Below the pieces are notes generated by a model. It was not told where the DNA came from. It made no database searches and saw only the letters and a list, made by a program, of their open reading frames with translations. Of a stretch of 64,000 nucleotides of DNA, positions 34,931 to 60,628 are shown piece by piece. The stretch's first letter is position 1. Every line of letters starts with the position of its first letter. Location: positions 1 to 64,000 of the forward strand of contig JAJYNO010000017.1 of NCBI GenBank assembly GCA_021786295.1, written 5' to 3'. The DNA comes from a bacterium. Lineage in GTDB: Bacteria > Elusimicrobiota > Elusimicrobia > Elusimicrobiales > UBA9959. Both the position numbers and the translations under genes were made by a program.

Positions 34931-34956
34931 ATAGGAAAAATAGATAGGAAAAATAG
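34931..34956. repeat. Tandem 13-bp direct repeat
   Basis: ATAGGAAAAATAG occurs twice back to back (34931-34943 and 34944-34956). The second copy overlaps the left arm of the long inverted repeat that follows. It lies just upstream of the DUF2400 start. Confidence 0.85.
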
Positions 34957-35013
34957 GGACAGACACCTATTTCCTTAAATATTATGGGGAAATAGGTGTC
35001 TGTCCCTATTTTT
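34949..35013. repeat. Perfect 26-bp inverted repeat, REP/REPIN-like palindrome
   Basis: Arms at 34949-34974 and 34988-35013 are exact reverse complements (core AGGGACAGACACCTATTT) around a 13-base AT-rich loop. The right arm ends 6 bases before the end of the osmC-like gene and the left arm lies upstream of the DUF2400 gene. Its composition is far more AT-rich than its surroundings. With T-rich flanks it could serve as a terminator, but the exact identity of the arms suggests a recently copied mobile palindrome of the kind spread by REP-associated tyrosine transposases. No such transposase is in the window. Confidence 0.8.
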
Positions 35014-35018
35014 ATTTG

Positions 35019-35450
35019 TTATTTTAGCGCGATTTTTAGGGGGGTGGGGAGGGAGAGATTGTCGCTTATGGGGCAGCGGGCCTCCACTGTTTTCAGGAGT
35101 TGTTCCAGTTTTTCGCGCGGGGCGTCGGCCTCCAGGCGTACGCTGGCCGCTATGCCTTTGAACCCGGCCCGGTCAGGCGACGGTCTGCCGCGGAATTTCA
35201 GCGGGTTTAGTTCGCCGCTGAGGTCCGCCCTGAAGCTCTTTATCTTTATCCCCATCTCTTCCGCCACCACGCCGCAGGCCACGCCAAGGCAGCCGCCCAG
35301 GGAGAAGAGCAGATACTCGGTCGGGGTCGGTCCCTTGTCGAGGCCGCCGGCGCTCTTGGGTTCGTCTATGCTGAGTTCGAAGCCCCTCGTCTCTGCCTTG
35401 AAAGACCCGTCCTGGCGCATTTCCACGCCGGCTTTGAATGTGACGTTCAT
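35019..35450 (-). CDS. OsmC/Ohr family protein
   Basis: The 143-residue protein has the OsmC fold with GPTPTEYLLFSLGGCLG, including Cys54, and the second redox Cys126 in VEARCPISDN. OsmC-like proteins reduce organic or inorganic hydroperoxides with a Cys pair. The ATG at 35450 has GAGGAG just upstream. It is the third gene in the direction rrf2-hcp-osmC, 66 bases after hcp with a strong hairpin in the gap. A stress-related role alongside Hcp is consistent, but the exact substrate is unknown. Confidence 0.88.
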   Translation of the reverse strand: MNVTFKAGVEMRQDGSFKAETRGFELSIDEPKSAGGLDKGPTPTEYLLFSLGGCLGVACGVVAEEMGIKIKSFRADLSGELNPLKFRGRPSPDRAGFKGIAASVRLEADAPREKLEQLLKTVEARCPISDNLSLPTPLKIALK

Positions 35451-39304: not shown

Positions 39305-39343
39305 ATATGAGGAAATTTGAAATGCGCGAGATGCGAAGTCGGG

Positions 39344-39460
39344 GGCGAGGGTATGCCTTCGCAGGGGCCTCGGGCGGCCCGAGCTTGCATAGCGCGAGGG
39401 CCGACCGATGTGAGCGAGGCACGGTGTGCCGAGCGTACCCGGAGAAGGCATACCCTCGCC
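39344..39460. ncRNA. Structured palindromic element, copy A (purC-purS gap)
   Basis: A 117-base element is closed by a perfect 17-bp stem (39344-39360 with 39444-39460). Inside are a hairpin unit GGCCC-GA-GCT-loop-AGC-GCGA-GGGCC-GA (39376-39404) enclosed by TCGG/CCGA, and a second hairpin GGCAC-GGT-GTGCC (39418-39430). The same arrangement with different but still complementary stem sequences recurs at 60500-60616. That pattern indicates selection for structure, either as RNA or as a folded DNA element. It is not coding and I do not recognise a known family. Strand is not determined. Confidence 0.6.
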
Positions 39461-39491
39461 AGGCCCGGGCTCTGAACAAGCGGAGAACTAT

Positions 39492-60471: not shown

Positions 60472-60499
60472 ATAGCTGTCTTTGCCTGCGGAGGGTGAC

Positions 60500-60616
60500 G
60501 CGCGGACAGGGTTAGCGGGACTGTCACGGAGGCCCGAGCTTGCGTAAGCGCGAGGGCCGAGTGACAAGCGGCGGCAACGGTGTTGCCGACCGCGTGTCCC
60601 GCGTTCCTGTCCGTGC
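60500..60616. ncRNA. Structured palindromic element, copy B (gcvPB-lplA gap)
   Basis: An outer stem GCGCGGACAGG (60500-60510) pairs with CCTGTCCGTGC (60606-60616), and then GCGGGAC (60515-60521) pairs with GTCCCGC (60596-60602). Within it TGTCAC/GTGACA (60522-60527 with 60561-60566) encloses GGCCC-GA-GCTT-GCGT-AAGC-GCGA-GGGCC-GA. A second hairpin GGCAAC-GGT-GTTGCC is at 60573-60587. The core matches copy A at 39344-39460, and where stem bases differ the partners differ in step. It is non-coding; strand is not determined. Confidence 0.6.
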
Positions 60617-60628
60617 GGCGCCCGGGGC

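What the first reader, a model, noticed from the sequence alone, without database searches (positions are those of the whole stretch)
39344..39460. Two-copy structured element with covarying stems (copy A)
Copy A (39344-39460, between purC and purS) and copy B (60500-60616, between gcvPB and lplA) share one architecture: an outer stem, an enclosing stem, then GGCCC-GA-GCT(T)-loop-(A)AGC-GCGA-GGGCC-GA, then a GGT-loop hairpin. Unpaired pieces (GA, GCGA, GGT) and GGCCC/GGGCC are conserved. The other stems differ but remain complementary: GGCAC/GTGCC versus GGCAAC/GTTGCC, GCT/AGC versus GCTT/AAGC, TCGG/CCGA versus TGTCAC/GTGACA. That is a covariation signature for a structured RNA or a folding DNA element. 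I recognise no known family. Both copies are in folate/purine-related operons, which may or may not be meaningful.
Basis: seen in the sequence. Interest (0 to 1): 0.85.

Follow-up and report, generated by a model that had tools for sequence, protein, structure and literature searches.

The report
Structured ends of mobile gene cassettes
The two look-alike folded DNA pieces belong to a large family of roughly 130-base three-armed structures that, in a little-known group of environmental bacteria (Elusimicrobia), often sit as mirror-image pairs at the ends of small mobile DNA units, some of which carry a foreign-looking gene; no enzyme that moves them was found.

Summary
A covariance model finds 27 copies in this genome, copies in all 32 genus genomes searched and in four other genera of the family. 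Rfam has no match at its thresholds. Covariation is overwhelming: 182 double-changed cells versus 46.6 in shuffles on 33 copies. One strand folds better in 176 of 181 copies. It does not look like a cis-regulatory RNA: copies lie in either orientation. Neighbouring copies within 1.5 kb are nearly always divergent (22 of 23; 18 of 21), never convergent. They enclose about 0-120 bp or an AT-rich insert with one or two genes (13 of 14 larger pairs examined). Units up to 97% identical sit between unrelated flanks, without target-site duplication (0 of 32) and beside a pyrimidine-rich side. Best reading: structured ends of non-autonomous mobile cassettes in Elusimicrobia, recognised as a folded single strand by an enzyme acting in trans. 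Y1 transposase, integron integrase and Y2 transposase were tested and none fits; the mobiliser is unknown.

The parts
39324..39342 (-). tail motif beside copy A (CCGACTTCGCATCTCGCGC on the minus strand); in other tail-bearing copies this motif lies 3' of the element, at the outer end of the unit
   Evidence: regex match 39325-39341; tail side; motif family
39337..39461 (+). copy A as matched by covariance model R1 (98.2 bits, E 1.4e-19)
39344..39360 (+). copy A, 5' arm of outer stem P1
39370..39408 (+). copy A, arm P2: TCGG/CCGA (39370-39373 with 39405-39408), GGCCC/GGGCC (39376-39380 with 39398-39402), internal loop GA/GCGA, GCT/AGC
39418..39430 (+). copy A, arm P3: GGCAC, triloop GGT, GTGCC
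39444..39460 (+). copy A, 3' arm of outer stem P1
60490..60620 (+). copy B as matched by covariance model R1 (125.3 bits, E 1.5e-25)
60499..60510 (+). copy B, 5' arm of outer stem P1 (CGCGCGGACAGG; partner CCTGTCCGTGCG, with a G.T pair)
60515..60521 (+). copy B, 5' arm of inner part of P1 (GCGGGAC; partner GTCCCGC 60596-60602)
60522..60566 (+). copy B, arm P2: TGTCAC/GTGACA (60522-60527 with 60561-60566) enclosing GGCCC (60531-60535) / GGGCC with internal loop GA/GCGA
60573..60587 (+). copy B, arm P3: GGCAAC, triloop GGT, GTTGCC
60606..60617 (+). copy B, 3' arm of outer stem P1

Best explanation
The elements are structured ends of a family of non-autonomous mobile DNA units in Elusimicrobia. 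A unit is two ends in divergent orientation, each an about 130-nt three-way junction (long outer stem, internal-loop arm, triloop arm) on the strand that runs outward, often followed by a short outer tail; between them lies a spacer of about 0-120 bp or one or two genes. Shown: the structure, its covariation, the folding strand, the divergent pairing, near-identical units at unrelated sites, no target duplication, and a pyrimidine-rich side of insertion. Inferred: a recombinase or transposase supplied in trans recognises the folded single strand of DNA by its shape (helices interrupted by purine mismatches) rather than by stem sequence, which is why the outer stem can be almost free in sequence. 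Solo copies such as A and B would be relics of such units or single-end insertions. Which enzyme does it is unknown.
For: 27 copies in the genome, all 32 genus genomes; 35 of the 38 positive genomes in a 294-genome phylum sample are of one family. Covariation. Outer stem: median 27 pairs in 187 copies, 182 different 14-nt arm words. Plus strand folds better in 176 of 181 copies with RNA and 175 of 181 with DNA parameters; G.T 78 and A.C 20 in outer-stem columns of alignment A3. Close pairs: 22 divergent, 1 tandem, 0 convergent (2 antisense double matches dropped); 18 divergent, 3 tandem, 0 convergent (6 of these 21 share an identical copy with the first set). 13 of 14 pairs 425-3000 bp apart hold DNA of GC 0.37-0.48 (flanks 0.58-0.63) with short ORFs. 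In G024, 33 pairs of 19 units are >= 80% identical, best 97%, with mean flank identity 0.57 and 0.55 against 0.55 for shuffled flanks. No duplication of 4 bp or more at the borders of 32 units; T at -2 in 26 of 32, C at +3 in 22 of 32. purC-purS holds an element in 5 of 17 loci and none in 10. G010 carries a 1.28-kb insert plus a second end where its 93-94% identical relative G002 has one end.
Against: No enzyme found, and no copy with a recombinase between the ends was seen. Many copies are solos: 89 of 122 carry none of three tail motifs by regex. Solos recur at the same sites across species, which could mean host use. Divergent neighbours further apart (2375 and 4700 bp, 2606 bp) hold DNA of ordinary GC (0.60-0.62), so not every divergent pair is a unit. 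DNA versus RNA as folded strand is open. In copy A the core is inverted relative to the tail, which the simple model does not explain. Whether G010 gained or G002 lost is unknown.
Confidence: 0.6

Rival explanations
1. The folded strand is RNA: the elements are transcribed structured RNAs, either trans-acting or the recognition part of a retroposon copied through an RNA intermediate.
For: Strong RNA fold energies; G.T over A.C asymmetry and plus-strand preference; G-A mismatches and triloops suit RNA as well as DNA.
Against: TATAAT-like boxes in the sense 5' flank are no commoner than in the controls: 56 of 184 (shuffled 46.2) against 55 on the other strand and 65 for the antisense of the 3' flank. 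Antisense to both neighbours 60, sense 32, of 162 copies. No Rfam match. No reverse transcriptase was searched for and no expression data were available.
Confidence: 0.15
2. REPIN-like units moved by the clade's Y1 (RAYT-type) transposases.
For: Inverted doublets with a spacer, palindromic, mostly extragenic, as in REPINs (PMC3116915, abstract). Y1_Tnp is found in 27 of 32 genus genomes.
Against: None of 30 Y1 loci fetched (one per genome as a rule, 23 of them of the genus; one search lists more Y1 places that were not examined) carries an R1 match or one of two tail motifs within about 1.5 kb. No Y1 match in five genus genomes with 29-54 element copies (drafts, so absence is soft). The Y1 gene in L151 is flanked by another inverted word, GGACAGACAC, which also occurs in an inverted repeat of the window at 34937-35025.
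Confidence: 0.1
3. Site-specific tyrosine recombination (host Xer or a relative) acting on folded ends, as in integrons or dif modules.
For: Structured ends with free sequence and small orphan genes recall integron cassettes; genes flanked by Xer sites recall dif modules of Acinetobacter (PMC12907356, start of abstract in the listing). All 45 genomes match the integron-integrase model below its cut-off, which I read as Xer-type recombinases.
Against: No integron integrase over the curated cut-off in 45 genomes, 28 of the genus. Units are dispersed with inverted ends, not direct-repeat arrays. Neither attC nor dif sites were searched for.
Confidence: 0.1
4. Domesticated repeats kept for a host role (transcript end, mRNA stability, chromosome organisation).
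For: Recurrence at purC-purS in 5 of 17 loci and at gcvPB-lplA in six genomes (flanks read by eye); compensatory change at one site between two close genomes, 5 double to 1 single.
Against: A U-tract 3' of the element in only 7 of 187 copies, so not intrinsic terminators. Orientation varies at the same site. Near-identical copies at unrelated sites.
Confidence: 0.1

Closest known systems
REP / REPIN (REP doublets) with RAYT transposases
   Same: Palindromic, mostly extragenic, many copies, inverted doublets with spacer, thought to be non-autonomous (abstracts of PMC3116915, PMC3733652, PMC8266576)
   Different: REPs are 20-40 bp palindromes tagged GTAG or CGTC (PMC3733652, abstract); these are about 130-nt three-way junctions with a hypervariable long stem, can enclose genes, and were not found beside Y1 genes
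Integron gene cassettes with attC sites
   Same: Small units with mostly unknown genes; ends conserved in structure more than in sequence; strand-specific folding (IntI binds the attC bottom strand: PMC3053210, abstract)
   Different: Two inverted ends per unit rather than one attC; dispersed; no integron integrase over cut-off
dif modules of Acinetobacter (Xer)
   Same: Genes carried between recombination sites (PMC12907356, start of abstract)
   Different: dif sites are short (recalled); none was searched for here
Parvovirus terminal repeats and Streptomyces telomeres (comparison from recall; listings only)
   Same: Long stem plus two inner hairpins at each end, unpaired tail, purine mismatches; GCGNAGC words in 46 of 184 cores
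   Different: Chromosomal short units, no replication gene seen; a resemblance, not tested
MITEs
   Same: Non-autonomous units with inverted ends
   Different: No target-site duplication; ends alike in fold more than in sequence; gene cargo

Membership tests
Any Rfam family | match to a covariance model | tested here: not met
   Only a tRNA in the window at gathering threshold; for L006, L007 and L340 the only match up to E 1 is FinP, antisense, 26.9 bits against its 45-bit cut-off
REPIN / RAYT | 20-40 bp hairpin tagged GTAG or CGTC | tested here: not met
   Elements are about 130 nt and three-armed. GTAG was seen by eye in one tail class; tags were not counted
REPIN / RAYT | elements next to a Y1 transposase gene | tested here: not met
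   0 of 30 fetched Y1 loci, 23 of them of the genus; other Y1 places not examined
REPIN / RAYT | inverted doublets | tested here: met
   22 of 23 and 18 of 21 close pairs divergent
Integron cassette | integron integrase | tested here: not met
   0 of 45 genomes over the TIGR02249 cut-off (drafts)
Integron cassette | attC core boxes | not tested
   No attC search was made
DDE-type MITE | target-site duplication | tested here: not met
   0 of 32 units with 4 bp or more at borders set by the tail motifs; longest shared word in 10-nt flanks 2.81 against 2.84 in permutations
IS91-like (Y2) derivative | Y2 transposase in genomes with elements | tested here: not met
   PF04986 found in 10 of 28 genus genomes and not in the own genome (drafts)
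Cis-regulatory RNA / riboswitch | same orientation as a downstream gene | tested here: not met
   Of 162 copies 60 antisense to both neighbours, 32 sense, 28 between convergent, 10 between divergent genes, 30 unclear, 2 inside ORFs (rough gene calls)
Intrinsic terminator | hairpin followed by a U-tract | tested here: not met
   7 of 187 copies on the sense side, 17 on the other

The most novel reading that the evidence does not exclude
A new class of gene-capturing mobile system: units of one or two genes bounded by large three-way-junction ends whose stems change sequence freely by paired changes, recognised by fold alone, spreading orphan genes in a bacterial phylum without integron integrase and with an enzyme of unknown type, possibly through fold-back (hairpin-primed) copying that rewrites both stem arms at once.
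Probability: 0.25. Interest if true: 0.92.

Novelty: new variant of a known kind. Interest (0 to 1): 0.75.

Why it matters
Integrons are the textbook case of gene capture through a folded single DNA strand. A second, independent solution, with larger ends and inverted pairing, would show that fold-based recognition arose more than once and would give a natural series of hundreds of compensated variants for testing what an enzyme reads in a fold. It also explains a class of strongly folded intergenic repeats in Elusimicrobia that could otherwise be taken for regulatory RNAs.

Tried and rejected
Riboswitch or leader RNA of purine/folate genes: orientation and location speak against it. Intrinsic terminators: no. 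Known Rfam family: none. Y1/RAYT, integron integrase and Y2 transposase as mobiliser: no fit. Matches of the exact core pattern in six records of other phyla (titles: Thermoplasmata, Conexibacter, Planctomycetota, Alphaproteobacteria, Variovorax, Edaphobacter): only short stretches of the model match, 12.2-16.6 bits, taken as chance. Virus contigs: no exact match to a core or a tail pattern. Flip-flop of the core as in parvovirus ends: of 33 copies with a recognised tail, 32 have it on the 3' side and the other is an antisense double of the same place; copy A, whose tail is too degenerate for that regex, is the one copy I recognised with the tail on the 5' side, so this is one case, not a pattern. 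Double versus single changes at short divergence: copies >= 0.90 identical give 27 double, 10 single and 36 pairs involving a mismatch in one set, and 33, 13 and 31 in the other, so suggestive only. A tail-III word at window 138 lies in coding sequence by eye and has no element.

Literature: ten searches. Four held the term Elusimicrobi (72, 74, 91, 112; in 91 and 112 it was optional, and only the top 12 of 665 and 8 of 327 were listed). No listed title concerned such elements; only open-licence PMC papers are covered. I read the abstract and outline of four papers; for all others I saw only listings.

Full report
WHAT WAS CHECKED. Copies A and B are real and at the stated places. Both fold much better than dinucleotide shuffles (z -6.69 and -7.63), the plus strand better than the minus strand (A -77.5 versus -71.4; B -87.7 versus -74.9 kcal/mol; the minus strands also fold well, z -6.29 and -6.82). 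Rfam gives no match at its own thresholds, and a lax search of three loci gives only a sub-threshold antisense FinP match.

COPIES. A core pattern found 7 places, and a shorter one 11, in the window's own genome, and places in 23 of 61 genomes, all of one genus (two of the 11 do not look like the core). From 33 copies I built a covariance model R1; 34 were listed after leaving out 12 loci with inserts, cut or odd copies, and one more was left out. R1 finds 27 copies in the own genome at E <= 0.001; copies in 33 of 61 genomes, namely all 32 of the genus and one of another genus (at most 56 candidates scored per genome, so higher counts are floors); and in 38 of 294 genomes of the phylum: 23 of the genus, 12 of four other genera of the family, and 3 single weak matches (1.1e-6, 1.0e-4, 2.3e-6) in other families. 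Two genomes scored more deeply have 68 and 70 copies. The six match by chance only. One title names groundwater; that the GWA/GWB/GWC series is groundwater too is recalled.

STRUCTURE. On the 33-copy alignment 97.1% of cells pair (77.9% in shuffles, at most 49.2% when partners are slid), with 182 double-changed cells against 46.6. On 102 matches from named genomes (aligned to the model, so leaning to it) 96.0% pair, with 614 against 149.7. The outer stem has a median of 27 pairs in 187 copies (range 0-33, 183 with 15 or more) and 182 different 14-nt arm words; the ACGGYGT triloop is in 173 of 187. Between orthologous elements in two genomes with 93-94% identical flanks, 41 shared pairs are the same, 5 differ on both sides and 1 on one side. 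The plus strand is the folding strand: more stable in 176 of 181 copies with RNA and 175 of 181 with DNA parameters; G.T 78, A.C 20, other mismatches 66 in outer-stem columns. This does not decide between RNA and single-stranded DNA. Some copies hold a nested hairpin TGGAGCGNAGCGACA (15 of 184); that GCGNAGC forms a very stable DNA mini-hairpin is recalled, with only listings seen.

PAIRS AND CARGO. Among 126 matches in 99 loci, neighbours within 1.5 kb are 22 divergent, 1 tandem and 0 convergent; the gap is 13-104 bp in 16 and 452-1280 bp in 6 divergent pairs (2 antisense double matches dropped). A second set of 74 named loci (the six chance records left out) gives 18 divergent, 3 tandem and 0 convergent, 16 of the divergent ones with gaps up to 118 bp; 6 of these 21 pairs share an identical copy with the first set. 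In G016 and G013 I took by eye all divergent neighbours 425-3000 bp apart, plus the G010 pair: 14 in all. Thirteen hold DNA of GC 0.37-0.48 against flanks of 0.58-0.63; the fourteenth (2606 bp, GC 0.62, an enzyme that by eye is a glycogen branching enzyme) looks like ordinary chromosome between unrelated copies. In the named loci two divergent neighbours at 2375 and 4700 bp also hold DNA of ordinary GC (0.61, 0.60), and one tandem pair holds 683 bp of GC 0.47. Of 15 cargo ORFs, one has a Pfam match over its cut-off (Mrr_cat); several look membrane-bound by eye. Of ten scanned against PADLOC three had matches: Mrr-like nuclease models, PtuB (HNH)-like models, and for the third a type I specificity model and candidate systems.

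UNIT ENDS. Outward of some ends lies a tail, CGACTNNRCWTCTCGCGG (105 exact places in 7 genomes, none of the reversed control) or GCGGTAGGCCGCC. I fetched 20 of the 26 such places in G024, mostly ones where R1 had listed no match. All 20 hold an R1-type element as the end away from the tail; the tailed end is R1-type in 2 (L338, L341) and by eye another hairpin family in the rest. Over all loci 33 units with both tails were found. Of 32 with full flanks none has a duplication of 4 bp or more at the borders that the tails define (2 have 3 bp, 5 have 2 bp), 26 have T at -2, 22 have C at +3, and the right flank is pyrimidine-rich. In G024 33 pairs among 19 units are at least 80% identical (best 97%) with mean flank identities of 0.57 and 0.55, the level of shuffled flanks, 0.55; one such pair has a left flank of 0.82, where by eye another end precedes both. 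This is the main evidence of recent movement.

SITES OVER TIME. At purC-purS (copy A) 17 genus loci were compared: 5 carry an element (own genome sense, four antisense to purC), 10 have none, one has another insert, one contig ends too early. At gcvPB-lplA (copy B) elements occur in six genomes, three in each orientation relative to the operon, with different stem sequences (flanks read by eye; genomes without one were not sought). The gap between a NUDIX gene and dnaE is a hot spot: R1 matches in 10 of 26 loci as pairs, solos or cassettes; by eye one locus has only two inverted tails back to back and another nothing of the kind. G010 carries a 1.28-kb insert and a second end where G002 has a single end; which state is older is open.

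FUNCTION. A role as regulatory RNA of neighbours is unlikely: of 162 copies with enough flank, 2 lie inside ORFs, 60 are antisense to both neighbours, 32 sense, 28 between convergent and 10 between divergent genes, 30 unclear (rough gene calls). They are not intrinsic terminators (U-tract in 7 of 187), and TATAAT-like boxes upstream are no commoner than in the controls. The best-supported account is mobile-unit ends read as a folded strand. The enzyme is missing: no element at 30 fetched Y1 loci, 23 of the genus; no integron integrase over cut-off in 45 genomes, 28 of the genus; Y2 in 10 of those 28 and not in the own genome; no exact core or tail pattern in virus contigs. All these genomes are drafts.

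OPEN POINTS. Copy A is the one copy I recognised with its tail on the 5' side, that is, with the core inverted relative to the tail; the orthologue L132 has tail and core in the usual order. Solo copies are common and not explained in detail. Whether both stem arms change together through selection or through copying of one arm from the other is not settled.

Noticed in passing
window 34937-35025: Inverted repeat (38-nt arms, 87% complementary) with the word GGGACAGACACC; the word GGACAGACAC flanks a Y1 transposase gene in inverted order in locus L151, so these may be Y1-type ends, unlike the three-armed elements.
   Followed up: partly
L328-L347 (G024): A second family of hairpin ends (GGCAGGGGTGCTG... 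/ AGTACCCCTGCC and variants) with the same outer tail, some with an extra hairpin of about 100 nt in the tip. No model was built for it.
   Followed up: partly
L184-L209, NUDIX-dnaE intergenic: Insertion hot spot with different content in many genomes, including two back-to-back tails (L196) and, read by eye and not scanned, a MazEF-like gene pair (L194).
   Followed up: partly
15 of 184 element cores: Nested hairpin TGGAGCGNAGCGACA inserted within elements.
   Followed up: no
L186 (G013) and L187 (G020): By eye, hairpins with the same tail but a quite different inner fold, as if cores were exchanged while tails stay.
   Followed up: no
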